Below, piece after piece: positions 2,097 through 18,754 of a stretch of 64,000 nucleotides of DNA. The stretch is from the NCBI RefSeq assembly GCF_002443155.1, contig NZ_CP023667.1:3348001-3412000 (forward strand), written 5' to 3'. Positions within the stretch are counted from its first letter, which is position 1; each line of letters begins with the position of its first letter. A model generated the notes under the pieces. That model worked only from the letters and a program-made list of their open reading frames with translations, was not told the origin of the DNA and did no database searches. A program made the translations under genes and the position numbers. This DNA comes from Alcaligenes faecalis. GTDB lineage: Bacteria > Pseudomonadota > Gammaproteobacteria > Burkholderiales > Burkholderiaceae_B.

Positions 2097-2340
2097 GTGA
2101 GCCCCTCTGGCCTGCGCCGGGGCCTTGGGGCGATTCAGAGCGCTTGCCGCAGGCGAGAGAGCAGGCAGGGGTTCAAGCACCCAGCTGTTTGAGCCCGACG
2201 CTTGTACTTGGTCCGGGGGACCAAGTACCGGGCGAGTTCTGGGTGCGCCCTGCCTGATCTCTCGACAAGGGGACCGGTGCGCAGCACCGGCAAGAGCTCA
2301 AGCCCCAAGGCCCCGGCGCAGGCCAGAGGGGCGTCTTCAC
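2097..2340. repeat. Large imperfect palindrome (~240 bp)
   Basis: The outer arms are a perfect 31-bp inverted repeat (2101-2131 with 2302-2332). Inside, further paired blocks keep the same nested order: GCTTGCCG-type (near 2142 and 2286), CGAGAGA/GCAGGCAGG (2154-2169) with CCTGCCTGATCTCTCG (2249-2264), GCACCCAG (2177) with CTGGGTGC (2239), and at the apex an 11-bp stem GTACTTGGTCC/GGACCAAGTAC (2204-2214, 2218-2228) with a GGG loop. The right arm has an additional small hairpin (CCGGTGC-GCA-GCACCGG, 2274-2290). A single strand would fold into one long rod. It sits just past the stop of the TonB receptor gene. There is no U-run, so it is not a simple terminator; it could be a miniature mobile or repeat element, or a structured RNA. 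Confidence 0.85.
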
Positions 2341-2404: not shown

Positions 2405-4513
2405 TCAGAAGTTATATTTCACCCCACCAAAGAAACTCCTGCCATTGCCCGCCAGATAAGTCGGCATCGCCTCCGAAGCCGAGCGACGAATCACATAGCT
2501 GCTGGCGTAAGTCTTATCAAAAATGTTATCCGCCATCAGATAAGCACTCCAATGCTTGTCATGCTGATAAGCGACCTTGAAGCCCCAAATGGCATAGGCA
2601 TTTTGATGCGTGCCTTCCACATTCTGATGATTGGTTGGCGTATCCGAAGCCAGCCAGCGCACATTCGGCCCAAAACGCCAGCCACCGCGGCGATACATCA
2701 GCTCTGCACCCAGCAAATGCTTGGGCACCCCGGCAATACGATTGCCTTCATACTCGCCGCCACGGAAACGGAAATCACTGTAGGTATAGGACAGACGATA
2801 GTCCCAACGCCCTGCCGCCGGCGCAGTCAAAGAACCGCTCAAACCCGCTTCCACACCCTGATGCCGCGTACGATCACCATAGTTGAACGTCACTGACGAC
2901 GCCCCCGTCGCATCACTGACAGCCATCAGCTCATCTTTCACATTGCTGCGATACACGGCCAAAGACCAGTCCACCGCCGACTCGCCCCTACCCAAACGCC
3001 CGGCCCCGCCCAACTCAAAAGTCGTGGCCTTTTGCACATTCAATTCTGTCAGCCCCGTCACGGCCGAGCGCACATTCATGGGCTGCGGCACTTCCGCACT
3101 GATGATCTCCCAATACGTAGGCGCTTCATGACTGCGGCTGACATTGGCAAACACCCGCAAATCCTCGGACGGCTGCCAGACCACACCCAGTTTCGGGCTG
3201 GCGTAAGACCATTTCTGGTTCAGGGTATCGCCCCCCAAACGATTGCGCGCATCACGAATCGCCTGGCTGTACTTCACATCCCCCACCACCGTCCACTGGG
3301 GCGCAACCTTCCAGCTCAAACCCAACAGCGCATTGCGGTTTTCAGCCCGCAGGCGATAGTCCCCAAAGAACAAGGCACGGCTGCCATTGGCAGGATTGAC
3401 CGCATACAACTCACGATCCATATCACTGCGCGCCCAGTCCAGGGCAAGGCGATAATCCAGGCTGCCTTCACGACCGGCCAACTGCCACTGTGCGCCATAG
3501 GTATTCCCCTTGGTGGGCGAAGACACCTGCGGATTCGTAAAAGTATCGTCCACCGTCTGCCAGTACAGGCCCACGGTCTGGTTGAAATCCTCGGTACCCC
3601 AATAACTACGGTTAGCCAGACGGAATTGAGTGGCCTTGCGATTCGGGTCGCGGTTATAGACATTGGCCGCCATATCCTGCGGCGTGCCATAGTCCCCCAT
3701 CACACTGCGCGGATCGCTGTAAAGACGCTCACGCGGGACCACATTGGGAATATCAAACTTCAAATCCACATAGGACAGGTAGGTGCGGTTCTCGAACTGC
3801 CCGCGCCTGAAACCGATATTGCCCTGCACATTCGTGCGCTCGGAATCCGAGTGATGGCGATAGCCATCGGCCTTGTCGTGGCTGACGGCCAATCGCCCAT
3901 CAAACTCGTCCGTCTGAAAACCCTTGGCCGCATACAAGCCCAAACGCCCGAAGCTGCCGCCTTCCACGCTGATGGCATCGCCCTGTGTGCCATTCATGGA
4001 ACGGAAATCCAGCTCGCCACCCAAGGTGGTTGCACTGGGGGACAAGGCATTGGCACCACGCCGCACGCTGATCAAGGAACTGTTGCGCGGTTCCAGAAAA
4101 CCAATCACAAAAGAGCCGTCCGCCTCGTTCAAAGGCAGGCCATCCTGTAGCAACAAGACACCTCGATTAACCGGATTGCTTTGAATCCCCGAACCGCGAA
4201 TATTGAGCCGTGGCTGATCAATCCCGCCAAAGAAATCCTGCACCACCAGACCGGGTTGATAATCCAGGGCATCGCGCAAGGTCACCAGACGCACTTCTTC
4301 CTGCGGCTGAATCAAGTTGGTGCCACCGGGCACGGCGTCCAGGCGGGCTTTCTCTTGTCGTAGGTCAGCCTGCAGCACGCTTTGCCCGACAGGCGCCTTG
4401 ATGACAATGGGAGACAGGGTGGAGGTAGACGGATCGGCCCAGGCGGCGCCCGACCACAGCCCTCCCAGCGCCAGGCTGACCGTCAGCCGACGCAATACAG
4501 GAACGTGTGACAT
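2405..4513 (-). CDS. TonB-dependent outer-membrane receptor
   Basis: A 702-residue outer-membrane receptor: signal peptide ending near AWA, then a TonB-box-like stretch (STLSPIVIKAP), a plug domain (about residues 55-165 with the DALDYQPG and NIRGSG motifs), and a 22-strand-type barrel ending in the expected aromatic residue (YNF). It is the last gene of a five-gene unit after the CopD-like membrane protein (24 bp gap) and the ABC transporter genes, so receptor and inner-membrane transporter probably handle one ligand. A Fur-like box and an FNR-type operator precede the unit. The ligand is not evident; candidates are a metal chelate, a siderophore or haem. The large palindrome lies just downstream. 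Confidence 0.85.
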   Translation of the reverse strand: MSHVPVLRRLTVSLALGGLWSGAAWADPSTSTLSPIVIKAPVGQSVLQADLRQEKARLDAVPGGTNLIQPQEEVRLVTLRDALDYQPGLVVQDFFGGIDQPRLNIRGSGIQSNPVNRGVLLLQDGLPLNEADGSFVIGFLEPRNSSLISVRRGANALSPSATTLGGELDFRSMNGTQGDAISVEGGSFGRLGLYAAKGFQTDEFDGRLAVSHDKADGYRHHSDSERTNVQGNIGFRRGQFENRTYLSYVDLKFDIPNVVPRERLYSDPRSVMGDYGTPQDMAANVYNRDPNRKATQFRLANRSYWGTEDFNQTVGLYWQTVDDTFTNPQVSSPTKGNTYGAQWQLAGREGSLDYRLALDWARSDMDRELYAVNPANGSRALFFGDYRLRAENRNALLGLSWKVAPQWTVVGDVKYSQAIRDARNRLGGDTLNQKWSYASPKLGVVWQPSEDLRVFANVSRSHEAPTYWEIISAEVPQPMNVRSAVTGLTELNVQKATTFELGGAGRLGRGESAVDWSLAVYRSNVKDELMAVSDATGASSVTFNYGDRTRHQGVEAGLSGSLTAPAAGRWDYRLSYTYSDFRFRGGEYEGNRIAGVPKHLLGAELMYRRGGWRFGPNVRWLASDTPTNHQNVEGTHQNAYAIWGFKVAYQHDKHWSAYLMADNIFDKTYASSYVIRRSASEAMPTYLAGNGRSFFGGVKYNF

Positions 4514-4537: not shown

Positions 4538-4981
4538 TTACCAGTGCAGATAAAACATGGTCTTGGCCAGGATCACGATCCCGACCATGTGACAGAACAC
4601 GCTTAGGTGAATGCGCTTGAAATGGATGGACTTCATGCGTCCGGTGCGCCGCAAGGTCATGGCCGTCAGAAAATGGCCAAAAACGCTGAGCGCCAACAGA
4701 ATCTTGATCGTCAGAAACAGGCCCAGGGTGTTGTCAAAAGGATGGGCCAGCGCAGCGCGGTGATGCCAGGCCAAACCTATCCCGGCGCTGTACAGAACCA
4801 GCAGAACCCAGGGCATGATGCGCCGGGCACGGTCACCAATAGCAATCTCCAAGGTGCGCATGGCCTCTCGCGGAACGTGCTTGCGTATGCCTTCCAGCAT
4901 CAGGACTTCAAAGAACACCGTGCCGATGAAAAACAAAGCAGCAAACAGGTGGAACAAGAGGATCACGGGATAGGCAGTCAT
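4538..4981 (-). CDS. CopD-like histidine-rich membrane protein
   Basis: A 147-residue protein with about four membrane helices and unusually many histidines close to the helices (LLFHLF near the N-terminus, a WHHR pair, FGHFL, IHFKRIH, FCHM, YLHW at the C-terminus). This pattern resembles the CopD/DUF2269-like family of small inner-membrane proteins thought to bind copper or haem. The ATG at 4981 overlaps the stop of the ABC ATPase gene (ATGA), so it is translationally coupled to the transporter. The longer frame to 5035 is only overlap with that gene. Its place between ABC transporter and TonB receptor suggests it handles or senses the same metal or haem ligand. Function is inferred. Confidence 0.6.
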   Translation of the reverse strand: MTAYPVILLFHLFAALFFIGTVFFEVLMLEGIRKHVPREAMRTLEIAIGDRARRIMPWVLLVLYSAGIGLAWHHRAALAHPFDNTLGLFLTIKILLALSVFGHFLTAMTLRRTGRMKSIHFKRIHLSVFCHMVGIVILAKTMFYLHW

Positions 4982-5679
4982 GGCGTCAAAGCCTCCTGAG
5001 ACAAAAGTTGGGCGTACAAGGAATCGGCCAGACACTCACGGGCAGCGGTATCCGCCGGGGCCACAGGCTCAAACAGCTGGCCTTGTCCCTTTTGCAGCAG
5101 CAGGCAGGAATCAGCAACCCGCATCAACTCACGGGGTTGATGGCTGACGTACAGCAGCGCCGCTCCAGTTTCTTCCAGACAACGCAGGCAGGCTTGGGCC
5201 AGGCTGTTACGCAGGGCCGGGTCCAGAGCGCTGAAAGGTTCGTCCAGCAGCAAAAGATCCGGCTGCAAGGCAAAGGCGCGGGCCAGTGCTACCCGTTGCG
5301 CCATGCCACCGGACAACTCGCCGGGCCAGGACTGGGCGACATCGGCCAGTTCCACCTGCCCCAGCCAATACATGGCACGCTCTTTGGCTTGCGTAGCGGA
5401 CAAACCTTGCGCACGTAGCGGAATCTGCACGTTGTCCAGCACGCTGCGCCAAGGCAGCAAACGAGGCTGCTGAAACACCAGCACAGGGTGACGGAACTCG
5501 TTCCAGATCTGGCCGTTATCGGGCTTGATCAGCCCGGCCACCAAACGCAGCAAGGTGCTTTTGCCTTCACCGCTAGGGCCAAGAACGCCCAGGCGCTGCC
5601 CGGCTTTCAAGGTGAAACTTAAATCCTGCAAAACCGGTTTTTGCCCGAACAGGACTTGCACATGGCTTAGCTCAAGCAT
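4978..5679 (-). CDS. ABC transporter ATP-binding protein (NitT/TauT type)
   Basis: A 233-residue ATPase of the nitrate/sulfonate/taurine importer group. Walker A (GPSGEGKST), the Q-loop FQQPRLLPW, the signature LSGGMAQR and Walker B LLLLDEP are all present in order. The ATG at 5679 is preferred because the frame up to 5739 overlaps the permease gene; it overlaps the permease stop (5672-5674) by 8 bp. It would energise the permease encoded upstream. The FQQPRLLPW form of the Q-loop is typical of SsuB/TauB-like ATPases. Confidence 0.85.
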   Translation of the reverse strand: MLELSHVQVLFGQKPVLQDLSFTLKAGQRLGVLGPSGEGKSTLLRLVAGLIKPDNGQIWNEFRHPVLVFQQPRLLPWRSVLDNVQIPLRAQGLSATQAKERAMYWLGQVELADVAQSWPGELSGGMAQRVALARAFALQPDLLLLDEPFSALDPALRNSLAQACLRCLEETGAALLYVSHQPRELMRVADSCLLLQKGQGQLFEPVAPADTAARECLADSLYAQLLSQEALTP

Positions 5680-6451
5680 GGCTGTCCTCCCGCCACTGTC
5701 CCAGACGACGCTGCAAGGGTTGCAGCAGGACAAATTCAATCGCGGCGACCAAGCCCAGAATCAGCACCACCCAGGCATACAGCTCGGCACTGTCAAAGGT
5801 GCTGCGCGCATTGGCCAGGGCATAGCCCGCACCACTTTCCGCACCCAGCACTTCGGCCATCACCACCAGACGCACACCACCGCAGCAAGCGATCAGCAAA
5901 GCAGCCGTCAAGGGGGCCGTCAGGGAAGGCAGATACAGGTGACGCAGACGACGCCACCAGCCAAAGCGGTAAACGTGGCTCATTTCGATCAGATCGCGGT
6001 CTACCTGCAACATGCCTTTGACCGTGTTCACGTACATGCCCGGCACCATCATCAGCACCGTCATGAAAATCACCATGCCCGAACCCAGACCAAACCAGAG
6101 CATGGCCAGCACAACCACCACCACAGGCGGAATCGCCATCAACAACCAACGTAAAGGTTCCAGCAAGCCGCGCAGCCGCGGACTGTGCGCCGCCAAAATG
6201 CCTAGCGTGAAACCAATGGAACACCCCACGCTGACGCCAATGGCCACGCGCAGCAAACTGGCTCCGGCGACATTCAGAAAATGGCCGGACATCATCAAAC
6301 GCGGAATCGCACGGGCGGTTTCTATGGGGGAGGCCATCAGCAAAGGCCCCAGAAACATGGCGCTGATCTGCCAGCACAGCAAGATCAGCAGCACCCCCGC
6401 TACGCCCCATGCACGAGAGCTACGGGCCGTTAAATGAGACCTGGTTTTCAT
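5672..6451 (-). CDS. ABC transporter permease (NitT/TauT type)
   Basis: A 259-residue inner-membrane permease with about six helices and the SsuC/TauC-type coupling region (MSHVYRFGWWRRLRHLYLPSLTAPL, whose EAA-like loop contacts the ATPase). The start overlaps the stop of the binding-protein gene (ATGA at 6448-6451) and its end overlaps the ATPase start, so all three are translationally coupled. It forms the channel of the importer with the binding protein (6448-7431) and the ATPase (4978-5679). Confidence 0.85.
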   Translation of the reverse strand: MKTRSHLTARSSRAWGVAGVLLILLCWQISAMFLGPLLMASPIETARAIPRLMMSGHFLNVAGASLLRVAIGVSVGCSIGFTLGILAAHSPRLRGLLEPLRWLLMAIPPVVVVVLAMLWFGLGSGMVIFMTVLMMVPGMYVNTVKGMLQVDRDLIEMSHVYRFGWWRRLRHLYLPSLTAPLTAALLIACCGGVRLVVMAEVLGAESGAGYALANARSTFDSAELYAWVVLILGLVAAIEFVLLQPLQRRLGQWREDSHA

Positions 6452-7431
6452 GGTCCATAAAACCCGGCAGCAGGCAGACCACCACCCAAGGCTTGGGGAT
6501 GCTGATCCGCCAGCAATTGATACAGCGCTTCCAGTTGAGGGCGGATTTCACTGGCTGGACGACTATCCAGACGAGTCTTTTCAATCGCGGTTTGAATTGC
6601 CGGAACCGGGAACTGGGGTAAATAGCCATGAACCATTTGGGCGCACTCTTGCGGCTGCTGACTGCACCAACGGGCCGACTCGGCATAAGCCCGTTCCACG
6701 GCCTGATTCAGCTCGGTATCGTGGGCAACGGTGACGTTAGCCATGACACCGGCTTGAGGCAGCGCCTGTTGCGAAGGGAACACTTCCGCCCAGGCTTGCT
6801 CCAGACTTTGGCCACGATGCAGTTCCACCTTTTTCTGCTCGGCCTGCCACAAGAGCAAGGAGGCAGTAGGTTCAACCAGCAGGGCCTGATCGCCCTGCCC
6901 GGTCAGCATCAAGGCAATCGCATCCTGAGCATCACGGGTACGGCGCAAGCGCACGGCTTCCTTGCCCGGTTCGGCTTGCTTGGCCAGCAAGGTGTCCAGC
7001 AGGACAGCAGGCAGATCGCGCTGGAATGGCACCAGCAGTTCTTGACCGGCCAGATCGCTAAAGCTCTTGACGGCAGGATCACGGCTGACCAGCCACAAAA
7101 TCCCCCAGACCGAGATATTCAGCTGTTTGACGGCCTGTCCCTTGTTGAACATCAAGGCGGACAAATTGCTGGGTGCAGCGCTGTAATCCACTTCTTTCTT
7201 TGCCAGCAGGACACGCAACTGATCCGGGTTTTGCCACAGACGAAACTCCAGCTTGTCCGTGTATTGGCTCAAGGCCTGGGTCTGCGCCATATGCATCAAG
7301 GGATAGGACACCACCGCGCCTGGACCAGCCAGAGTCAGGGACTCATAACGGGGAGCGGCCTGAGCACCTACTGCCAGCGAGGCCAAGAGCAAGCCAGGCA
7401 AAACACGGTTCAAGACTTTGCGAACGAACAT
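6448..7431 (-). CDS. ABC transporter periplasmic substrate-binding protein (NMT1/SsuA-like)
   Basis: A 327-residue binding protein with a clear signal peptide (basic start, hydrophobic LLLASLAVG, cleavage after AQA). The rest fits the NMT1/SsuA-like fold: an early strand followed by SYPLM, then LLAKKEVDYSAAPSN and FSDLAGQELLVPF. The start at 7431 was chosen because it gives the signal peptide directly and has a purine-rich site (AAGAGATGG) upstream. The frame is open about 100 codons further (to 7755), but that part lacks the codon pattern of its neighbours and runs across the proposed promoter. It is the first gene of the uptake operon. Members of this family bind sulfonates, thiamine precursors and other small ligands; the present ligand is unknown. 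Confidence 0.75.
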   Translation of the reverse strand: MFVRKVLNRVLPGLLLASLAVGAQAAPRYESLTLAGPGAVVSYPLMHMAQTQALSQYTDKLEFRLWQNPDQLRVLLAKKEVDYSAAPSNLSALMFNKGQAVKQLNISVWGILWLVSRDPAVKSFSDLAGQELLVPFQRDLPAVLLDTLLAKQAEPGKEAVRLRRTRDAQDAIALMLTGQGDQALLVEPTASLLLWQAEQKKVELHRGQSLEQAWAEVFPSQQALPQAGVMANVTVAHDTELNQAVERAYAESARWCSQQPQECAQMVHGYLPQFPVPAIQTAIEKTRLDSRPASEIRPQLEALYQLLADQHPQALGGGLPAAGFYGP

Positions 7432-7761
7432 CCCACGGCCATCTCTTTTGGAGTTACCCAGCGCCTTAGAGGCAAACCGAGCAAGAACCCGCTCCTTAAC
7501 TCCACCCAAAACGTGAACCTGTGCCCCGTTTTTTAGATCAGGTTCATCCAGACGGAGCATGGCAGCATGCTTACCCGATAAGCCAGCATCGATTGCCTTG
7601 GGAGCAGCTTGGTTTAAGGGAAGCCCACTCACATGGCTGGCGAGAGCCTGCCGCCCTCTCTCTGAACGGGCAATTTTTCCCTGAGATGCAGCCCAGCAAT
7701 GAAACCCTTGATAGATATATGGCATGAAGATTCGTATAATGAGAACTATTATCAAATGGGA
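7432..7761 (-). promoter_or_regulatory. Long 5' leader of the uptake operon
   Basis: If transcription starts near 7755 (from the operator and -10 described next), about 320 nt precede the first gene. The leader can form an 8-bp hairpin (TGAACCTG at 7514-7521 with CAGGTTCA at 7539-7546). The sequence TGAACCTGATCT recalls part of the TPP riboswitch, but the partner elements are missing, so no riboswitch is called. The frame is open throughout and fused to the signal peptide, yet codon use differs from the neighbouring genes. Confidence 0.4.
7735..7753. promoter_or_regulatory. Candidate Fur box
   Basis: The 19 bases from 7735 match the Escherichia coli Fur consensus at 15 positions (core ATAATGAGAACTATTATC). 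The box overlaps a TATAAT hexamer (7735-7740) usable by the regulator gene, and lies just downstream of the proposed start of the divergent uptake operon. Iron-dependent repression of both directions is therefore plausible. Confidence 0.65.
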
Positions 7762-7802
7762 ATTCTCCCATCTTCATCCCAGCGTCCCAATGACAAAAGT
7801 CA
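7762..7802 (-). promoter_or_regulatory. FNR/DNR-type class II promoter for the uptake operon
   Basis: The palindrome TGACAAAAGTCA (7791-7802) fits the FNR-family form TTGAY-N4-RTCAA. On the minus strand the hexamer GAGAAT (7767-7762) begins 29.5 bp from its centre, which is the spacing of an activator bound at -41.5. The start of transcription would be near 7755. The same 16 bases (7787-7802) recur inverted at 8520-8535 with the same spacing to the same hexamer. Confidence 0.6.
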
Positions 7803-8503
7803 ACATGCCCGGCCCGTGTCCAGCTTTGTTTGAATTGCTGGCCCGCCACCGCCTCCTGCAAGGTCTGCCCATCGAGGTCATCCAGCATTTGTGCCATGAC
7901 GCCCTGGCTCAGCACGCCAGCGCCGGCCAGATTCTGTTCAATGAAGGTGACGAGGCCCGCTATTGCTTGCTGGTCGATAGCGGCCAGGTAGAAATCCTGC
8001 GCTACAGCCAAAATGGCGACGAACGTGTTTTCAACGTATTCGAGCCCGGCCAACTGGTAGCGGAAGCCGCCATGTTCATGCCGCATGGTCGCTACCCCAT
8101 GTGCGCCCGCGCCAAAGGGACAGTACGCGTCTACAAGCTCTCGCGCAGCAGTCTGCAAGAAGCCTGCCGCCGCTGGCCCGAACTGGCCATGAACATGATG
8201 GCTGGCCTGAGCAGCGCCTTGTATGCACAGGTCAACAAAGTGGATTGGATTTCCGCCAGCTCGGCCGCCGAGCGCCTGGCCAACTACTTGCTGAATCTGC
8301 AGGCCCGCCAAGGGGAACATATCCAATTGCCTTTGAACCAACGGCAACTGGCCGCCCATTTGGGCATACGGGCAGAAACCTTGAGCCGTTTGTTTACCGA
8401 CTGGCAGGCGCGTGGTTATGTCAGCGGCAAGCGCAGCGACTGGCAGGTACATGACCAGGCCCACCTGCGCCGTTTGGCCAGTCCAGCCCAACGCTCTTTT
8501 TAA
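7790..8503 (+). CDS. CRP/FNR-family regulator, DNR-like
   Basis: A regulator of about 237 residues: cyclic-nucleotide-binding-type beta-roll (ILFNEGDEARYCLLVDSGQVEIL and AEAAMFMPHGRYPMCARA), a dimer helix, then a helix-turn-helix (RQLAAHLGIRAETLSRLFTDW). The recognition helix carries the E-x-x-S-R pattern of FNR/DNR proteins, which read TTGAT-like half sites. It lacks the N-terminal cysteine cluster of FNR and matches DNR-type nitric-oxide/low-oxygen regulators better, including AEAAMFM. Start uncertain: ATG at 7724 lies upstream of the promoter and Fur box; 7790 and 7805 are the realistic choices, neither with a good ribosome site. It lies between two copies of one operator and probably controls the divergent uptake operon and the following globin gene. 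Confidence 0.8.
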   Translation: MTKVNMPGPCPALFELLARHRLLQGLPIEVIQHLCHDALAQHASAGQILFNEGDEARYCLLVDSGQVEILRYSQNGDERVFNVFEPGQLVAEAAMFMPHGRYPMCARAKGTVRVYKLSRSSLQEACRRWPELAMNMMAGLSSALYAQVNKVDWISASSAAERLANYLLNLQARQGEHIQLPLNQRQLAAHLGIRAETLSRLFTDWQARGYVSGKRSDWQVHDQAHLRRLASPAQRSF

Positions 8504-8519
8504 GCGATCGACGCACTCA

Positions 8520-8560
8520 TGACTTTTGTCATTGGAGACCCTTTCAAGCAGACCGAGAAT
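8520..8560 (+). promoter_or_regulatory. FNR/DNR-type class II promoter for the globin gene
   Basis: TGACTTTTGTCA (8520-8531) is the exact reverse complement of the palindrome at 7791-7802; the identity covers 16 bases (8520-8535). GAGAAT at 8555-8560 begins 29.5 bp from the palindrome centre, as at the divergent promoter. Transcription would start near 8567, which leaves ATG 8592 as the first usable globin start. Confidence 0.6.
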
Positions 8561-8591
8561 GCCGACTTTTAGCTTCTCTGGCTTGATACCC

Positions 8592-9266
8592 ATGACACAC
8601 TCGCCGCCGCAGGCCGATTACACCGAAGCCGACATCCGCCAACTGGTGACCCAGTTCTACGCCCAGGTACGGCAAGATGTACAACTAGGCCCGATTTTTG
8701 AACACCATGTGCAGGACTGGGACGAGCATCTGGATATGCTGTGTGATTTCTGGTCGGCCATTTTGCTGGGCACACGCCGCTTCAAGGGCGCCCCGATTGC
8801 GCGCCATGCGGCCCTGCCCGAGTTATCCTGGCCCTTGTTTGAACGCTGGCTGGAAATTTTCCACCAAACCACGGCCAATCTGGGCAAACCCGCCCTGCAA
8901 GAAAAGGCAGACGCCATGGCAGACCGAATTGCCGCCAAACTCTGGCAAACCTATCAGGCGCAAAGCAATCAAACGCGCCTGCCCGACACCCTGCCCGAAG
9001 GGCTGGAACGCTACAGCCAATCCCCCGTTTTCACGCCGGACAATTTGCCCGAGGCCCTGCGCCGTGCCCACAACACCAAGGCCGGCACCTGGGGCCTACT
9101 GCGGGTTCAAACCGGCGTACTGCGCTTTGCGCTGGACCAGGAGCCCTTTACCGAAGTAGTCCTGACAGCCGGCCAATGCGTGGTCATCGAGCCCCAGATT
9201 CTGCACCACGTGGAGTTCGAGCTGCCCGGCAGCTTTCAGATCGAATTCTTCAAACAAGCCCGCTAA
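8592..9266 (+). CDS. Group III truncated haemoglobin fused to a DUF1971 (YeaR/TehB-N-like) domain
   Basis: A 224-residue fusion. Residues 1-125 read as a group III truncated globin: an early YTEADIRQLVTQFYAQVRQD, then GPIFEHHVQDWDEHL, FWSAILLGT, and a likely haem-ligating His in PIARHAALP followed by FERWLEIFHQT. Residues 132-224 are a small beta-barrel of the DUF1971 group (LPEGLERYSQSPVFTPDNLPEALRR, then a cupin-like run ending HHVEFELPGSFQIEFF), related to YeaR of E. coli, which is induced by nitrate and NO. The upstream frame to 8526 uses a TTG and runs across the proposed -10, so ATG 8592 is chosen. Role inferred: NO or peroxide handling under low oxygen. It is driven from its own FNR-type site. 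Confidence 0.8.
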   Translation: MTHSPPQADYTEADIRQLVTQFYAQVRQDVQLGPIFEHHVQDWDEHLDMLCDFWSAILLGTRRFKGAPIARHAALPELSWPLFERWLEIFHQTTANLGKPALQEKADAMADRIAAKLWQTYQAQSNQTRLPDTLPEGLERYSQSPVFTPDNLPEALRRAHNTKAGTWGLLRVQTGVLRFALDQEPFTEVVLTAGQCVVIEPQILHHVEFELPGSFQIEFFKQAR

Positions 9267-9503
9267 ATTGAAAAAATCCCTTGCAAACAGTAGGTGAATA
9301 CCCGCATCACCGACTACACTTGCGGCTCTGGCGTGAAAACCTCAATAGAATCAAGATTGTCCTTGATCAATTAGTCACGCCCTTCGGGCAGTAACCCATA
9401 AGTTCAACGCTTATACTGTTCAACTATAAAACAGGGGCAGAGCTCACAAGGCGATTCCCCTCACGATTTCAAACACGAAAACACAATCCTATTGGAGAGC
9501 CGC
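9267..9503 (+). promoter_or_regulatory. Promoter region of the formate dehydrogenase operon
   Basis: No gene is seen here. A hairpin-forming repeat ATCAAG-N6-CTTGAT lies at 9350-9367. A GTTCAAC direct repeat (9402-9408 and 9418-9424) is followed by TATAAA at 9425-9430; TTCAAC at 9403-9408 is 16 bp upstream of it, a possible sigma-70 pair. No exact FNR site was found: TTGATCAATTAGTCA at 9363 is one base out of register. Confidence 0.35.
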
Positions 9504-12500
9504 ATGGTGAACATGAATCGGCGTCAGTTCTTCAAAGTGACGGGGGCCTCGCTGGCCAGTTCCAGCATGGTTTTGCTGGGCGCTGCGCCCACCCCCGCCA
9601 TGGCGGAAGTCAGGCAGTACAAACTGACCCGCATGACAGAGACGCGAAATACCTGTCCTTACTGTTCTGTAGCCTGTGGAGTGCTGCTGTACTCCCGTGG
9701 TGACGGTGCCATGAATGCCGAGCCCAGCGTGGTTCACATCGAAGGCGACGCGGACCACCCGGTCAATCGCGGCACACTCTGTCCCAAGGGCGCAGGCTTG
9801 GTGGATTTCATCAAGAGCCCCAACCGACTCAAATACCCCGAATACCGCGCCGCTGGCTCGGACAAATGGGAACGCATCTCCTGGGAAGACGCTTTCACGC
9901 GTATTGCCAAGCTGATGAAAGAAGACCGCGACGCCAACTTCCAGACCACGGCTGAAGATGGCACCGTCGTCAACCGTTGGCTGACCACGGGCATGCTGGC
10001 TGCTTCGGCAAGCAGTAACGAAGTGGGCTATGTCACCCATAAAGTCATCCGCAGCATGGGTGTACTGGCGTTCGATAACCAAGCACGTGTCTGACACGGC
10101 CCGACGGTGGCAGGTCTTGCCCCGACGTTTGGCCGTGGAGCGATGACGAACCATTGGGTCGACATCAAGAACGCGGATATTGTGCTGATTATGGGCGGCA
10201 ACGCAGCCGAGGCGCACCCCTGTGGTTTCAAATGGGTGACCGAGGCCAAAGCACACAACAATGCAAAACTGATCGTTGTGGATCCACGCTTTACGCGTTC
10301 GGCATCCGTGGCGGACTATTACGCGCCTATACGCACCGGTAGTGACATCACCTTCCTGGGTGGCGTCATCAAATACCTGCTGGATAACGACAAGATCCAG
10401 CACGAATACGTGCGCAACTACACCGATATGCCCTTTATCGTGCGCGAAGACTTTGACTTCGAGCAGGGGCTGTATTCGGGCTACAACGAAGAAAAACGCA
10501 GCTACGACAAGTCCTCCTGGGACTACGAGCTGGGCGAGGACGGTTACGTCAAAACCGACCCCACCTTGCAACACCCACGCTCGGTCTACCAACTGCTGCG
10601 CAAGCACTACGAGCGCTACACGCCCGAGATGGTGGAACGCGTCTGTGGCACGCCCAAGGACAAGTTCCTGAAAGTCTGTGAAATGCTGGCCTCGACCGCT
10701 GAACCGGGTCGCGCGGGCACCATTCTGTATGCACTGGGCTGGACGCAACACAGTATTGGTTCGCAGATCATCCGTACTGGCGCCATGGTCCAGCTGCTGC
10801 TGGGCAATATTGGTATTGCCGGCGGTGGCATGAACGCGCTGCGCGGACACTCCAACATTCAGGGTCTGACTGACCTGGGCTTGATGTCCAACCTGCTGCC
10901 CGGCTATCTGACTTTGCCCAACCAGGCCGAGAAAGAGTTTGACGGCTACATTGGCGCGCGTGCCCAACAGCCGCTCCGCCCCAACCAGCTAAGCTACTGG
11001 CGCAACTACAAGAAGTTCCACGTCAGCCTGATGAAGGCCTGGTTTGGTGATGCCGCCCAGGCCGACAATAACTGGGCCTACGACTACCTGCCCAAGCTGG
11101 ACAAGCTCTACGACATGCTGCAAGTGTTCGAGCTGATGGACGAAGGCAAGATGACGGGCTACATCTGTCAGGGCTTCAACCCCCTGGCGGCGGCACCGTA
11201 CAAGGCCAAGCTGCTACGTGGTTTCTCCAAGCTCAAGTACATGGTCATCATGGACCCGCTGGTCACGGAAACGTCAGAGTTCTGGAAGAACTATGGCGAG
11301 CACAATGATGTCGATTCCGCTTCCATCCAGACCGAAGTCTTCCGTCTGCCCACCACCTGTTTCGCCGAGGAAGAAGGCGCACTGGTGAACTCGGGCCGCT
11401 GGTTGCAATGGCACTGGAAGGCCGCCAACCCTCCGGGCGAGGCCAAGAGCGACATTGAGATCATGAGTACGCTGTTCACGCGCATTCGCTCGCTGTACCA
11501 GAAAGAAGGCGGTGCCTTCCCTGATCCGATCCTGAACCTGTCCTGGCCCTACTCCAACCCGGATGATCCAACCGCCGCTGAACTGGCCAAGGAATATTCG
11601 GGCCGCGCACTGGTGGATCTGCATGATCCCAAGGATCCGACCAAGATCACGCGTAAAGCAGGCGAGCAGCTGGATGGCTTTGCCGAATTGCGCGACGACG
11701 GCACCACGCTTAGCGGTTGCTGGATCTATGCCGGTGCCTGGACGCAGCAAGGCAATATGATGGCTCGCCGCGACAATAGCGACCCCACCGGCATCGGCCA
11801 GACGCTGAACTGGGCCTGGGCCTGGCCAGCAAACCGCCGCGTGCTCTACAACCGTGCTTCCTGTGACCTGACCGGCAAGCCCTTTGACCCACGCCGCAGC
11901 CTGGTTCACTGGGATGGCAAGCGCTGGGGTGGTGCGGACGTCCCCGACTACAAGGCCGATGAAAATCCGGCTGATGGCATGGGTCCGTTCATCATGAACC
12001 CCGAAGGTGTCGCCCGCTTCTTTGCCCGTAAGGGCATGGCAGAAGGCCCCTTCCCCGAGCACTACGAGCCCTTTGAAAGCCCGCTCAGCTACAACCCGCT
12101 CAGTCCTGACGAGCCACGTGCCATGACCAACCCGGCAGCGCGTATCTTCAAGGACGACCTGGCGGCCATGGGTACGGTAGACAAGTTCCCCTATGTGGGC
12201 ACGACCTACCGCCTGACCGAGCACTTCCACTACTGGACCAAGCACGTGAAGCTGAACGCCATCGTGCAGCCGGAACAGTTTGTGGAAATTGGCGAGGAAC
12301 TGGCCAAGGAAGTGGGCATTGTGCAAGGCGACCGCGTCAAGGTGTCCTCCAACCGTGGCTACATCAAGGCCGTGGCGGTGGTGACCAAGCGCATCAAGGC
12401 CCTGAACGTGGATGGCAAGGTTGTCCACCAGGTGGGTATCCCGCTGCACTGGGGATTTGTGGGTCTGGCACGACCTGGTTTCCTGATCAATGCATTGACA

Positions 12501-12578
12501 CCGCCCGTGGGTGATGGCAACTCGCAAACGCCAGAGACCAAGGCCTTCCTGGTTCAACTTGAAAAAATTAAGGAGTAA
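9504..12578 (+). CDS. fdnG: Formate dehydrogenase-N alpha subunit, selenoprotein
   Basis: A 1024-residue Mo/W-bis-MGD enzyme subunit that oxidises formate to CO2 in the periplasm. The twin-arginine signal is NRRQFFKVTGAS; a [4Fe-4S] site follows with Cys51, Cys54, Cys58 and Cys93 (CPYCSVACGV and TLCPKG). An in-frame TGA at 10092-10094 falls exactly at the selenocysteine position (ARV-U-HGPTVAGLAPTFGRGAMTNHW), residue 197. The frame continues without shift to 12578, so the two open frames are one gene. The ATG at 9504 follows GGAGAG. The gene lies upstream of fdxH (3-bp gap) and fdnI, and selA, selB and selC follow, which supports UGA recoding here. Electrons pass to the beta and gamma subunits and then to quinone. 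Confidence 0.95.
10092..10130 (+). promoter_or_regulatory. Selenocysteine UGA codon and SECIS hairpin
   Basis: Directly after the UGA (10092-10094) the mRNA can fold CGG (10105-10107), a bulged U, and GGCA (10109-10112) against UGCC (10118-10121) and CCG (10122-10124), with the loop GGUCU. The bulged U and the GGUCU loop are the features SelB reads in the known bacterial fdhF and fdnG hairpins, and the distance from the UGA agrees. Confidence 0.85.
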
Positions 12579-12581
12579 GCC

Positions 12582-13499
12582 ATGGCCTTGCAATCACTTG
12601 ATATCAAACGGCGCTCCGCAACCACCACCCCCATGCCCAGCGTGCGCGAGCCCGTGGGCGGGGAGGTCGCCAAGCTGATCGACACCAGTAAGTGCATTGG
12701 CTGTAAGGCCTGTCAGGTCGCCTGCATGGAATGGAACGATACGCGCGACGAAGTCGGCCACAACGTCGGGGTGTATGACAATCCGGCTGACCTGACCGAC
12801 AAGTCCTGGACCATCATGCGTTTTGCGGAGTATGAAAACCCCGCTGGCGATCTGGAATGGCTGATTCGCAAAGACGGCTGTATGCACTGCGAGGACCCAG
12901 GCTGCCTGAAGGCCTGTCCCTCGCCGGGCGCCATCGTGCAGTACACCAACGGCATTGTGGATTTCCACGAGGAAAACTGCATTGGCTGCGGCTACTGCGT
13001 GACCGGCTGTCCTTTCGATGTGCCCCGCATCTCGGAAAAGGACAAGAAAGCCTACAAGTGCACCTTGTGTTCAGACCGTGTCGCGGTCGGACAGGAACCG
13101 GCCTGTGCCAAGACCTGTCCTACCGGCGCGATTGTGTTCGGTACGAAAGAAGACATGCAGCACCACGCTGAAGAGCGTATCGAAGACCTGAAATCGCGTG
13201 GCTTTGAGAACGCCGGTCTGTACGACCCGGCCGGAGTGGGCGGCACCCACGTCATGTACGTGCTGCACCACGCCGACAAGCCCGAGCTGTACAGCGATCT
13301 GCCCAAAGACCCGCAGATCAGTCCGATGGTCTCGCTCTGGAAGGGAGTGGCCAAACCACTGGGCGTTGCTGCCATGGCACTGACCGCCCTGATTGGTTTC
13401 TTCCACTACATCCGAACCGGTCCTAACGAGACTGACGAGGAAGACGAGCGCCGCGCCGACGAGGACGCACGCAAGATCCAGGAGGCTCACCATGACTGA
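12582..13499 (+). CDS. fdxH: Formate dehydrogenase beta subunit (Fe-S electron transfer)
   Basis: A 305-residue electron-transfer subunit. It has four Cys groups for four [4Fe-4S] clusters: [37 protein letters not shown], and CTLC...CAKTCP. A single hydrophobic helix near residues 245-280 ([18 protein letters not shown]) anchors it in the inner membrane, as in FdnH. The ribosome site AAGGAG lies just inside the end of fdnG. The stop overlaps the start of fdnI by 8 bp. It relays electrons from the periplasmic alpha subunit to the cytochrome subunit. Confidence 0.93.
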
Positions 13500-14145
13500 T
13501 CACAACCGCAAGGGCATGATTCAGCGCTACACCACCAGTCAGCGCATTAATCACTGGATCATTGCCATGAGCTTTGTGCTGCTGGCCTTGTCCGGGCTGG
13601 CGCTGTTTCATCCGTCAATGTTCTGGCTGACCAATCTGTTTGGCGGCGGTCCGTGGACACGCATTCTTCACCCGTTTATTGGCGTGGTAATGTTTGTGTG
13701 CTTTTTCCTGTTTGCGGCTCGCATGGTACGGCACAATATGTTCTCCAAGGGTGACGCGGCCTGGCTGCGTCACTTCAAGGACGTGCTCAATGCCAAGGAC
13801 GAGCGCATTCCCGAAGTAGGCCGCTATAACGCCGGGCAAAAAATCCTGTTTTTTGCTTTGGTGATCTTCATGATCGGCCTGCTGGCAACCGGTGTGGTGA
13901 TGTGGCGCGAATACTTTTCCGCCTTCTTCCCCATCTGGGCTATCCGCCTGGCCTCCGTGCTGCACGCGGTTTGCGCCCTGCTGATGATTTGCGCGATTAT
14001 CGTGCACATTTACGCCGGTATCTGGGTAAAGGGTTCGGTCAAAGCCATGACCCGTGGCACGGTCACCCGTGCCTGGGCTTGGAAACACCACCGCGCCTGG
14101 TTCCGTGAAGAAATGGAAAAAGGTCCCAGCCGTCCTGCCGAATAA
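13492..14145 (+). CDS. fdnI: Formate dehydrogenase gamma subunit (cytochrome b556)
   Basis: A 217-residue membrane cytochrome with four helices (about residues 20-40, 55-78, 112-135 and 150-172) and the family's early His in [18 protein letters not shown], plus later His residues in helices 2 and 4 that can bind two haem b groups. The start at 13492 is an ATG overlapping the fdxH stop; the longer frame from 13393 only duplicates fdxH in another frame. It carries electrons from formate to the quinone pool. A hairpin with a T-rich tail follows the gene. Confidence 0.92.
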
Positions 14146-14171
14146 GCGGGGCTTTGGTACATAAGCAACCC

Positions 14172-14210
14172 GGCTGCCATGCACCATTTCGGGCATGGCA
14201 GCCTTGTTTT
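14172..14210 (+). terminator. Terminator or attenuator between fdnI and fdhE
   Basis: An 11-bp stem (GGCTGCCATGC at 14172-14182 with GCATGGCAGCC at 14193-14203) with a 10-nt loop is followed by TTGTTTT. It ends only 13 nt before the fdhE start, so it may lower expression of fdhE and the sel genes relative to the structural genes. Confidence 0.7.
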
Positions 14211-14222
14211 CAGGAGTCTGTC

Positions 14223-15149
14223 TTGCAACGCATCCTTCCGCGCGGCGAAATCGAAAGTCTGGACCACACCTCCATCCCCCGACTGCGCCTGCCTGTGCGA
14301 GCCAGCGTCTTTGCAGACCGGGCAGCACGTCTGCGCCAATTGGCTGATGGCAACCCCGTCGGCGCCTACCTGCTCTTGCTGGCACATCTGGTGGACGGGC
14401 AGCACAGGCAGCTTACTGCACTTGCCCCGGCCGAACTGCCCGCTGATGTGCTGGAAACGGCACAAAGGCACGGTATGCCGCCCTTGCTGGCCTCGGGCTG
14501 GAAACGCGATCCGCAGTGGCTCAGCATCTTGAACAGCCTGCTCAATCACATGATCAATACCTCGGACGTGCCTGCCGCCGCCCAAGAGGTTTGCCAGGAT
14601 CTGCTCCAGAAAGCCGAGTCTGACCCACAAAAGCTGGAAGATCTGGCTGACGCGATTCTGGCCGAGCAGTTGCCAGAACAAGATGGTGCCGCCGCACCTT
14701 TTGTCATGGCCGCCTTGCAGGTCTACTGGACACATCTGGCCTGCTCGCTGACCGAAGGCCAACTGTCTGTGACCAGCCCCTTTGGCGTGTGCCCCTCCTG
14801 CGGCAGCCTGCCCGTATCCAGCGTGGTACGTGTCGGTGGTCGTGAAGATGGTTGCCGCTACATGTGCTGCCCTCGTTGCAGCGTGGAATGGCATCTGGTA
14901 CGCGTGACCTGCTCGCACTGCGAGAGCACCAAAAGCGTGGCTTACCATGCCATTGAAGATGGCCCGGAAGGGATCAAGGCCGAGTCCTGCGACAACTGCC
15001 ACACCTACCGCAAAATCTTCTACCAGGAAAAACAACTGGGCCTTGATCCAGTTGCAGACGACCTGGCCAGTCTGGCTCTGGACGTTCTGATGGGCGAAGA
15101 AGGCTATTCCCGCGCCAGCGGCAATCCGCTTCTTTGGCATCAGTCTTAA
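14223..15149 (+). CDS. fdhE: Formate dehydrogenase accessory protein FdhE
   Basis: A 308-residue cytosolic maturation protein with the rubredoxin-like Cys pairs of the family: CPSCGSLPVSS, CCPRC, CSHCES and CDNC, and the ending LASLALDVLMGEEGYSRASGNPL, which is close to E. coli FdhE. The start is a TTG at 14223, six bases after AGGAG; the frame upstream to 14154 is open but unlike the family and contains the terminator hairpin. FdhE acts on the alpha subunit before Tat export. It follows fdnGHI and precedes selA. Confidence 0.88.
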   Translation: MQRILPRGEIESLDHTSIPRLRLPVRASVFADRAARLRQLADGNPVGAYLLLLAHLVDGQHRQLTALAPAELPADVLETAQRHGMPPLLASGWKRDPQWLSILNSLLNHMINTSDVPAAAQEVCQDLLQKAESDPQKLEDLADAILAEQLPEQDGAAAPFVMAALQVYWTHLACSLTEGQLSVTSPFGVCPSCGSLPVSSVVRVGGREDGCRYMCCPRCSVEWHLVRVTCSHCESTKSVAYHAIEDGPEGIKAESCDNCHTYRKIFYQEKQLGLDPVADDLASLALDVLMGEEGYSRASGNPLLWHQS

Positions 15150-15161
15150 GCTAAGATTCCC

Positions 15162-15193
15162 CTACGCCTTGCTGCTTCACGCACAAGGCGTAG
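15162..15193 (+). promoter_or_regulatory. Hairpin between fdhE and selA
   Basis: CTACGCCTTG (15162-15171) pairs fully with CAAGGCGTAG (15184-15193) around a 12-nt loop. No T-run follows, so this is either a weak terminator or an RNA-stability element in the 84-bp gap before selA. Confidence 0.5.
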
Positions 15194-15233
15194 CTGATGG
15201 ACCCTGCCCATAGACTCAAATGCCTGCCTTTGA

Positions 15234-16655
15234 ATGATGAGCCCTACTCCTGAACTCTCTCCCGCCCACATTCCCTCCCTGGACCGCTTGCTGCGCTCGC
15301 CAGAGTTCCAGCCCTTGCTAAGCCAGTTCGGCCATACGCGCCTTAGTCAAAGCGCGCGCGGCCATTTACAGGCACTGCGAGAGGCAGTGTTGAGGGGATC
15401 ACTAAGCCCTCAGGATCTGGAGCCCGCTCAGCTTGCCAAAGCACTGCAAGCACAGTTGCAGGAAGAATCCCGGTTGCAGCTGCGCCCAGTCTTCAATCTG
15501 ACCGGCACCGTGCTGCACACCAATCTTGGACGTGCGATGCTGCCGGACGAAGCCATACAGGCTGTCGTCCAGGCCATGCGCTCGCCCGCCAATCTGGAAT
15601 TTGATCTGGAAACCGGCGGCCGAGGCGACCGCGATGACCTGATCAACCCCTTGCTCTGCGAACTGACCGGCGCTGAAGCCGCCACGGTCGTGAACAATAA
15701 TGCCGCCGCCGTGCTGCTGATGCTCAGCACCCTGAGCCCCCACCGCGAGACCGTGGTGTCGCGCGGCGAACTGGTTGAAATTGGCGGCGCCTTCCGTATC
15801 CCCGACATCATGAAGCGTGCCGGTGCTCGTCTGCATGAGGTGGGCACCACCAACCGTACCCACGCGGCTGACTACGAAAACGCCATCAACGAGCGCACCG
15901 CCATGTTGATGAAGGTGCATTGCAGCAACTACGCCGTCAAAGGTTTCACCAAAAGCGTTGCAGTCGAAGAGGTTGCACAGATCGCCAGGAAGCACGGCCT
16001 GCCCACCAGCGTGGATCTGGGCAGCGGCACCTTGGTGGACCTGAGCCAGTGGGGCCTGCCGCCCGAGCCCACCGTGCGCGAGACCATCGAAGCCGGTGCC
16101 GATATCGTGACTTTCAGCGGCGACAAGCTGCTGGGTGGCCCCCAGGCCGGTCTGATCGTAGGCCGGGCAGACCTGATCGCCAAGATCAAGAAAAACCCGC
16201 TCAAACGCGCTCTGCGCGTGGGCAAAATCACCTTGGCAGCGCTGGAGCCTGTGCTGGCCTTGTACCGTTCGCCAGAGCGCTTACCCGAACACCTGACCAC
16301 CCTGCGTCTGCTGACCCGACCTTCTGCAGAGATGCGCGCCCAGGCGCTGCGTTTGGCACCCGTCCTGCAGCAATGGGTGGGGACACAATTTGCAGTCGAA
16401 CCCACTGCCATGCTGAGCCAGATTGGCAGCGGTGCTTTGCCCGAAGACGTGCTGCCCAGCTTTGGACTGCGCTTTGCCTACCAAGGCACAGGCCGTCCGG
16501 GCCGCCATCTGACTCAACTGGAAAAACGCCTGCGCACTTTGCCCCAGCCCGTCATCGGGCGCATTGCGCAAGATGCCTTTTGGCTGGACTTGCGCTGTCT
16601 GGAAGAACCCTTTGAGGCCGCCTTCAGCGCACAACTGATTCCCGAGCAAGCATGA
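15234..16655 (+). CDS. selA: L-seryl-tRNA(Sec) selenium transferase
   Basis: A 473-residue PLP enzyme that converts Ser-tRNA(Sec) to Sec-tRNA(Sec) with selenophosphate. The PLP lysine is Lys298 in [13 protein letters not shown]. Other family landmarks are [14 protein letters not shown] (85-101), [12 protein letters not shown] and [11 protein letters not shown]. The length is normal for SelA. Two ATG codons in tandem (15234 and 15237) could start the protein. The stop overlaps the selB start (ATGA), so the two are translationally coupled. Confidence 0.95.
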
Positions 16656-18571: not shown

Positions 18572-18616
18572 ACCCGAAGCGTCATGCGGGGGCCAGAGCA
18601 GGCAGCGCCCGGATCA

Positions 18617-18645
18617 TTGAAGCGTAATCAGCCCTAACGTATGAT
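18617..18645 (+). promoter_or_regulatory. Sigma-70 promoter of selC
   Basis: TTGAAG (18617-18622) and TATGAT (18640-18645) are separated by 17 bp. The tRNA begins at 18659, so transcription would start a few bases before it. This is the clearest -35/-10 pair in the window. Confidence 0.7.
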
Positions 18646-18658
18646 AGGGCCTCTTGAA

Positions 18659-18754
18659 GGAAAGCATCCGTGCCCGGTGGCACGGCCGGGCTTCAAACCC
18701 GGTTGGGGGCGTCAGACGTTCCCAGGTAGGTTCGACTCCTGCTGCTTTCCGCCA
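18659..18754 (+). tRNA. selC: tRNA-Sec (anticodon TCA)
   Basis: A 96-base tRNA with the hallmarks of bacterial tRNA-Sec: an 8-bp acceptor stem (GGAAAGCA with TGCTTTCC), an anticodon stem CCGGG/CCCGG around CTTCAAA giving anticodon TCA (18693-18695), a long variable arm, GGTTCGACTCC in the T arm, discriminator G and an encoded CCA (18752-18754). It lies directly after selB, as part of the selA-selB-selC group. Confidence 0.96.

What the first reader, a model, noticed from the sequence alone, without database searches (positions are those of the whole stretch)
7762..8560. Two copies of one FNR-type promoter, matched to the base, around a DNR-like regulator
A 16-bp sequence (7787-7802) recurs exactly in inverted orientation at 8520-8535. 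Its core is the palindrome TGAC-N4-GTCA. In both directions the hexamer GAGAAT begins 29.5 bp from the palindrome centre, the geometry of a class II FNR/CRP promoter (site at -41.5). One copy faces the TonB/ABC operon, the other the globin-DUF1971 gene. This gives a concrete regulon for the regulator encoded between them and a simple prediction of start sites (near 7755 and 8567).
Basis: partly seen in the sequence, partly recalled or inferred. Interest (0 to 1): 0.75.

Follow-up and report, generated by a model that had tools for sequence, protein, structure and literature searches.

The report
Iron-uptake switch embedded in own start
A bacterial switch protein is encoded between two matching DNA docking sites that probably turn on an iron-uptake operon and a small globin gene, and one of those sites contains the switch gene's own start codon, a layout kept in many related bacteria.

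Summary
Confirmed and extended. The 16-mer (7787-7802, inverted at 8520-8535) is exact, occurs nowhere else in the 4.08-Mb genome, and GAGAAT lies 29.5 bp from both centres. The bare palindrome is not significant (19 of 100 shuffles give two or more); conservation carries the case. Of 10 Alcaligenes genomes, the 8 with the regulator have TGACTTTTGTCATT exactly twice, flanking it; the 2 without have none. A -10-like hexamer sits 29.5-30.5 bp from the globin-side site in 20 of 22 loci, from the transporter-side site in 23 of 40.

'DNR-like' is loose: another Crp/Fnr gene of this genome lies beside nirK-like, norB and norR-like genes. Best reading: a local Crp/Fnr activator of two class II promoters, one also Fur-controlled, with probable self-repression at the start codon. 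Signal unknown; nothing tested at the bench.

The parts
7790..8503 (+). Crp/Fnr-family regulator, 237 aa from the ATG that lies inside the operator (MTKVN...); cNMP-binding-like domain and Crp-type HTH
   Evidence: PF00027 3.9e-18 and PF13545 2.5e-17 (scanned from 7805); predicted Crp/Fnr fold, mean pLDDT 89.1; orthologues open from the same ATG in 38 of 43 loci
7787..7803 (-). Transporter-side operator; on the - strand TTGAC-TTTT-GTCATTGG; contains the regulator's start codon (ATG 7790-7792)
   Evidence: a site of this form upstream of the regulator in 40 of 43 loci
7762..7767 (-). -10-like hexamer GAGAAT of the leftward promoter, 29.5 bp from the site centre; predicted +1 near 7755
   Evidence: NANAAT at 29.5-30.5 bp in 23 of 40 loci, shuffle mean 1.36
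7735..7753 (-). Fur-box-like element GATAATAGTTCTCATTATA, about +3 to +21 of the leftward promoter; also covers the -10 of the candidate rightward promoter
   Evidence: 14 of 19 to a recalled consensus; 0.3% of 5000 shuffles of this stretch reach 14; 29 of 40 loci score 12 or more
7712..7740 (+). Candidate sigma-70-type promoter of the regulator, TAGATA-17-TATAAT
   Evidence: 10 of 12 matches, but 0.8 such sites expected by chance in the scanned region; conservation not tested
8520..8535 (+). Globin-side operator TGAC-TTTT-GTCATTGG
   Evidence: a site with at least 7 of 8 core bases in 20 of 20 loci with the globin gene and in 2 of 23 without it
8555..8560 (+). -10-like hexamer GAGAAT of the globin promoter; predicted +1 near 8567
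   Evidence: NANAAT at 29.5-30.5 bp in 20 of 22 loci, shuffle mean 0.26
8592..9266 (+). Truncated globin (group III-like) fused to a DUF1971/TehB-N domain, 224 aa; ATG 25 nt after the predicted +1
   Evidence: 2ig3 group III truncated haemoglobin 4.1e-14, 3dl3 TehB 1.4e-9; PF01152, PF09313
6448..7725 (-). Substrate-binding protein of the ABC transporter, first gene of the leftward operon; earliest ATG at 7725, 30 nt after the predicted +1
   Evidence: PF02621 23.6 bits, below its cut-off of 26; 3hn0 'nitrate transport protein' 5.7e-9; hits in relatives
5672..6451 (-). ABC permease
   Evidence: PF00528 8e-25
4978..5739 (-). ABC ATPase
   Evidence: PF00005 3.2e-30
4538..5035 (-). Small protein, membrane-type by eye (CopD/HemJ-like by eye only)
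   Evidence: no Pfam or NCBIfam family at 1e-3; hits beside the regulator in relatives
2405..4513 (-). TonB-dependent outer-membrane receptor
   Evidence: PF00593 6e-41; 6v81 YncD 3.5e-20

Best explanation
The regulator gene encodes a local Crp/Fnr-family activator that binds two inverted copies of TGAC-TTTT-GTCATT. At each copy it sits at -41.5 of a class II promoter: one (start near 7755) drives the SBP-permease-ATPase-small membrane protein-TonB receptor operon, the other (start near 8567) drives the truncated-globin-DUF1971 gene. A Fur-box-like element just past the leftward start suggests that iron-loaded Fur switches the transporter operon off (and perhaps the regulator, whose candidate -10 it overlaps), so uptake would need both iron shortage and the activator's own signal. 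The leftward operator includes the regulator's ATG, so occupancy should hinder the regulator's own expression: built-in negative feedback. Shown from sequence: sites, spacing, conservation, start-codon overlap, co-occurrence. Inferred: binding by this regulator, activation, Fur control, iron-related cargo, self-repression. The signal (NO, low O2, haem or redox) is a guess from the globin partner.
For: Exactly two 14-mers per genome in 8 of 8 Alcaligenes genomes with the regulator, none in 2 of 2 without. Operator upstream of the regulator in 40 of 43 loci from Alcaligenaceae, Pseudomonas, Comamonadaceae, Stenotrophomonas and others; its ATG in frame and open in 38 of 43. At least one gene of the transporter operon divergent to the regulator in 38 of 43. 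Globin-side site in 20 of 20 loci with the globin, 2 of 23 without. -10-like hexamer at 29.5-30.5 bp in 20 of 22 and 23 of 40 loci, shuffle means 0.26 and 1.36. Fur-like element: window 14 of 19, reached by 0.3% of shuffles; mean best score 12.3 over 40 loci against 9.7 for shuffles, largest shuffle mean 10.1. The site is kept out of frame in L020 and with an in-frame stop in L027, so not for the peptide alone. Residues 1-6 are predicted disordered although M1 and T2 are at least 90% conserved. Similar layout in a second clade beside Peripla_BP_2/FecCD genes.
Against: No binding, start-site or expression data. 17 of 40 transporter-side promoters lack NANAAT at 28.5-31.5 bp, including L044 of the same genus, all five Pseudomonas loci, the Stenotrophomonas locus and all four Comamonadaceae loci, so class II spacing is not shown there. 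The best Fur-like match starts 35-45 bp from the site centre in only 31 of 40 loci, and 11 of 40 score below 12 of 19. FNR and another Crp/Fnr of the same genome could bind. Three of 43 loci show no operator (L057, L059; L009 is cut by the contig end). No clear Shine-Dalgarno stands before ATG 7790. The loci are related, so counts are not independent trials. The cargo is not established: the receptor's best solved matches are YncD, a PQQ transporter and a pyochelin receptor.
Confidence: 0.7

Rival explanations
1. The two sites are targets of FNR or of the Crp/Fnr protein encoded beside the nirK-like, norB and norR-like genes, and the regulator between them acts elsewhere.
For: The genome has a cysteine-bearing FNR (L101) and a further Crp/Fnr gene in a nirK-like/norB/norR-like cluster (L103, L114). 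TTGAC-N4-GTCAT resembles the FNR box.
Against: The 14-mer is absent in the two Alcaligenes genomes that lack this regulator; only 9 TGAYWWWWRTCA exist in the genome, 2 of them here; the site tracks this gene across genera. Whether those two genomes keep FNR was not tested.
Confidence: 0.15
2. The transporter-side palindrome is kept because it encodes the regulator's N-terminus, and the match with the globin-side site is accidental.
For: The ATG is in frame in 38 of 43 loci; start regions are often A/T-rich (57% A/T at the wobble of codons 2-3 in 27 other ATG ORFs of the window).
Against: Site kept out of frame (L020) or interrupted by a stop (L027); residues 1-6 predicted disordered; wobble of codons 2-3 is A/T in 98.7% against 21.3% in the rest of the 38 genes; a site of the same kind faces the globin in 20 of 20 loci with that gene.
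Confidence: 0.05
3. The regulator is a repressor, or the sites matter only for autoregulation, and Fur with the housekeeping sigma factor alone sets transporter expression.
For: The site sits on the regulator's own start codon; Fur control of TonB and ABC uptake genes is common (for example PMC6922518, passages).
Against: The sigma-70 scan reports no promoter-like pair at either place, while the site sits where a class II activator would stand, with the -10 spacing kept in many loci.
Confidence: 0.1

Closest known systems
DNR (denitrification regulator of Pseudomonas and beta-proteobacteria)
   Same: Crp/Fnr family, similar length, 73.2 bits to 3dkw, FNR-type palindrome
   Different: Site TTGAY-N4-GTCATT instead of CTTGAT-N4-ATCAAG (PMC1274295, section 7); neighbours are a transporter and a globin; another Crp/Fnr of this genome sits beside nirK-like and norB genes
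NssR with Cgb/Ctb in Campylobacter (recalled; papers seen only as search listings)
   Same: Crp/Fnr regulator controlling a group III truncated globin; the globin here matches 2ig3, a group III truncated haemoglobin
   Different: Globin fused to DUF1971; site differs from the recalled TTAAC-N4-GTTAA; includes a transporter operon with a Fur-like box; no NO data
DNR paralogue with a local globin operon in Acidithiobacillus ferrooxidans (PMC1274295, passage)
   Same: A Crp/Fnr gene clustered with a globin operon preceded by a candidate site
   Different: Single-domain globin; no uptake operon and no start-codon operator in the passages seen
Fur-repressed TonB/ABC iron-uptake operons (for example PMC6922518, passages)
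   Same: TonB receptor plus ABC importer with a Fur-box-like element at the promoter
   Different: Additional Crp/Fnr class II site; the importer in the window is SsuC/TauC-like, not FecCD

Membership tests
Crp/Fnr superfamily | cNMP-binding-like domain plus Crp-type winged helix | tested here: met
   PF00027 65.6 bits and PF13545 63 bits, both over cut-off; fold search
FNR proper | N-terminal cysteines for a [4Fe-4S] cluster (recalled) | tested here: not met
   The first 30 residues hold one Cys in the window and none in L004; the genome's L101 has the Cys-rich N-terminus
DNR | Orthology to DNR by tree | tested here: inconclusive
   73.2 bits to 3dkw, no better than 3h3z/3fx3; no labelled DNR was in the tree, whose long branches are unsure
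DNR | Recognition site CTTGAT-N4-ATCAAG at nir/nor/nos genes | tested here: not met
   Sites are TTGAY-N4-GTCATT-like at a transporter and a globin
DNR | NO sensing through haem (recalled) | not testable with these tools
   H99 is invariant in the 69 aligned sequences but there are no ligand data
Class II Crp/FNR promoter | Activator site centred near -41.5 with a -10 at the matching distance | tested here: met
   29.5 bp in the window; 20 of 22 and 23 of 40 loci at 29.5-30.5 bp; the start sites themselves are unmapped
Fur-controlled promoter | Fur box at the promoter | tested here: met
   14 of 19 to a recalled consensus, reached by 0.3% of shuffles
Fur-controlled promoter | Fur binding and iron response | not testable with these tools
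   no expression or binding data
Autoregulated gene with its operator on the start codon | Binding site spans the in-frame start codon | tested here: met
   38 of 43 loci; that translation starts there, and that binding represses, are not testable here

The most novel reading that the evidence does not exclude
Two clades of Crp/Fnr regulators tied to iron-type transporters share a self-limiting layout: the operator that activates the divergent uptake operon is also the regulator's start codon and first codons, so that the N-terminal peptide MT[K/N/F/I][V/I]N is an imprint of a DNA-binding site and occupancy shuts off the regulator's own message, under a second lock by Fur.
Probability: 0.4. 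Interest if true: 0.65.

Novelty: new variant of a known kind. Interest (0 to 1): 0.5.

Why it matters
It gives a branch of Crp/Fnr regulators, for which my searches listed no study, a concrete and tiny candidate regulon linking an uptake system to a globin, and an operator that can be read off the protein's first five residues. That makes members recognisable in protein databases and makes self-repression at a start codon testable by synonymous recoding. It also points to a place where iron (Fur) and a gas or redox signal (Crp/Fnr plus truncated globin) may be combined.

Tried and rejected
Bare palindrome as evidence: rejected, 82 copies in the genome. Wider regulon: TTGAYNNNNRTCATT gives 9 places and TGAYWWWWRTCA 9 in the genome, ours included. 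One search listed ORFs around the 14 other places; several lie inside long ORFs and the genes were not identified, so a wider regulon is neither claimed nor excluded; L094 carries a perfect FNR box just outside an ORF and is more likely FNR's. Family-wide pattern: 37 of 151 genomes match; of the 29 new loci (L137-L165) 14 start, at the site's ATG, an ORF with a recognition-helix pattern of this family and 15 do not, so the pattern alone proves nothing. RNA elements: Rfam found none at the locus. Wobble test: only suggestive, since early codons are often A/T-rich. Tree: long branches leave the relation of the two clades open. Literature: ten searches, judged from titles and abstract starts, listed no paper on this regulator, this operon or a start-codon operator in this family; two papers were opened (PMC1274295: passages and section 7; PMC6922518: passages). 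Most subscription papers are not held and synonyms were not exhausted.

Full report
What was checked. The sequence at 7787-7802 is CCAATGACAAAAGTCA and its exact reverse complement stands at 8520-8535. GAGAAT begins 29.5 bp from each centre, pointing away from the regulator. The 16-mer has only these two copies in the 4,075,263-base genome. The palindrome core alone proves little: 0.79 expected in the window, two or more in 19 of 100 shuffles, 82 in the genome against 51 for the reversed-pattern control. With an A/T-only spacer, TGAYWWWWRTCA, there are 9 places in the genome, two of them here.

Who the players are. The regulator (7790-8503) has a cNMP-binding-like domain and a Crp-type helix-turn-helix, a Crp/Fnr fold by prediction (mean pLDDT 89.1; fold search), and reaches none of the NCBIfam cut-offs. 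To the left is an operon of SBP, permease, ATPase, small membrane-type protein and TonB receptor; to the right a truncated globin related to 2ig3 (group III) fused to a TehB-N/DUF1971 domain. The window belongs to Alcaligenes or very near it: the regulator is 98% identical to that of A. faecalis AU14. The genome also has a cysteine-bearing FNR (L101) and a Crp/Fnr gene next to a sigma-54 activator with a GAF domain (norR-like), norB and a multicopper oxidase (nirK-like by size and place) (L114), so the window's regulator is not the obvious denitrification regulator.

Conservation. Forty-three loci were used: 29 of the 36 and 14 of the 30 (dropped rows are told under Tried and rejected). At least one gene of the transporter operon lies divergent to the regulator in 38 of 43; in 3 of these 38 only the small membrane-type protein was hit; L009, L030, L056, L057 and L059 had no hit. 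A site of the form ATGAY-N4-RTYA stands within 180 bp upstream of the regulator match in 40 of 43 (none in L057 and L059, cut off in L009; weak in L056). The globin gene follows the regulator in 20 of 43; all 20 have a globin-side site with at least 7 of 8 core bases, against 2 of 23 without the globin, L009 and L060. In the genus, 8 of 10 genomes hold the regulator, each with exactly two copies of TGACTTTTGTCATT that flank it; the other two have neither.

Promoter geometry. NANAAT stands 29.5 or 30.5 bp from the globin-side centre in 20 of 22 loci (shuffle mean 0.26, largest 3 in 2000) and from the transporter-side centre in 23 of 40 (mean 1.36, largest 7). The 17 misses on the transporter side include L044 of the same genus, all five Pseudomonas loci, the Stenotrophomonas locus and all four Comamonadaceae loci. 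The loci are related, so these are not independent trials.

The Fur-like box. Just past the predicted leftward start lies GATAATAGTTCTCATTATA (7735-7753, - strand, about +3 to +21), 14 of 19 to a recalled Fur consensus; 0.3% of 5000 shuffles of that stretch reach 14. Over 40 loci the mean best score is 12.3 against 9.7 for shuffles (largest shuffle mean 10.1); 29 of 40 score 12 or more, and the best match starts 35-45 bp from the site centre in 31 of 40. It also covers the -10 of the one promoter-like pair in the scan, 7712-7740, which could serve the regulator (0.8 expected by chance). I read the transporter as iron-repressed, which fits a TonB receptor; the actual cargo is not known.

The start codon inside the operator. 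In 38 of 43 loci the ATG of ATGAY is in frame with the regulator and the frame is open. In two Comamonadaceae loci (L028, L029) AGAGGA precedes it, a good ribosome site; the window has none that is clear. The proteins therefore begin, for example, MTKVN, MTNIN, MTNVK, MTFIN or MIKIN. Among the 120 listed of 307 database homologues, 89 begin with this motif, 10 more carry it within 45 residues and 21 do not; none of 804 methionines beyond residue 45, in both protein sets together, is followed by it. It is not kept for the protein alone: L020 keeps the site out of frame and L027 with an in-frame stop, residues 1-6 are predicted disordered while M1 and T2 are at least 90% conserved in 69 sequences, and the wobble bases of codons 2-3, which lie in the spacer, are A/T in 98.7% against 21.3% for the rest of the 38 genes, although early codons are A/T-rich in general (57% in 27 other ORFs of the window).

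A second clade. A pattern search of 151 family genomes pointed to regulators 33-35% identical to the window's (L138, L146, L148; identities) that start MTIVN on the same kind of site, with NANAAT at 29.5-30.5 bp and, by eye, a Fur-like stretch beyond. In L146 the divergent genes are Peripla_BP_2 and FecCD, an iron-type ABC importer; L138 and L148 carry relatives of both. Of 47 database homologues of L146's regulator, 34 begin with the motif, 3 more carry it within 45 residues and 10 do not. The tree does not settle whether the clades share the layout by descent.

Mechanism, with the status of each step. Binding of this regulator to both sites: inferred from strict co-occurrence. Activation from -41.5: inferred from geometry. 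Iron repression by Fur: inferred from the box. Self-repression by occupying its own start codon: inferred from the overlap. Signal: unknown; the globin partner and the invariant H99 make NO, O2 or haem plausible.

Relation to what is known. DNR binds CTTGAT-N4-ATCAAG-like sites at nir, nor and nos genes (PMC1274295, section 7 read), and a DNR paralogue with a local globin operon is predicted in A. ferrooxidans (same paper, passage). NssR with Ctb in Campylobacter is the closest working analogue, from recall. None of the ten paper searches listed, by title or abstract start, a Crp/Fnr operator on the gene's own start codon; that is a statement about those searches only.

Noticed in passing
window 7431-7725 (- strand): The substrate-binding protein has an open N-terminal extension of about 98 codons ahead of what looks like its signal peptide. 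Four Alcaligenes relatives keep the frame through indels, but substitutions fall evenly on the codon positions (6, 10, 11 against 11, 5, 53 in the mature part, L003).
   Followed up: partly
window 2101-2131 and 2302-2332: A 31-bp exact inverted repeat, arms 170 bp apart, between the TonB gene and the Xre-type gene.
   Followed up: no
window 9492-18750: An apparent selenocysteine formate dehydrogenase right after the globin, with SECIS (10089-10147) and tRNA-Sec (18659-18750) found by Rfam; fdhE- and selA-like genes between them are named by eye.
   Followed up: no
L165, 1537-1613: Behind a start-codon-type site the frame runs into 9.6 copies of an 8-bp repeat (TGGCGTGT) and ends after 76 codons: possibly a broken or phase-variable case, or no regulator at all.
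   Followed up: partly
L114, 3105-9276: Multicopper oxidase (nirK-like), norB, sigma-54 activator (norR-like) and a further Crp/Fnr gene in one cluster of the same genome.
   Followed up: partly
regulator residues 95-104 and 237 (alignment A1): M95, M97, H99, G100, P103, M104 and the C-terminal F237 are invariant in 69 aligned relatives, with no role known to me.
   Followed up: no
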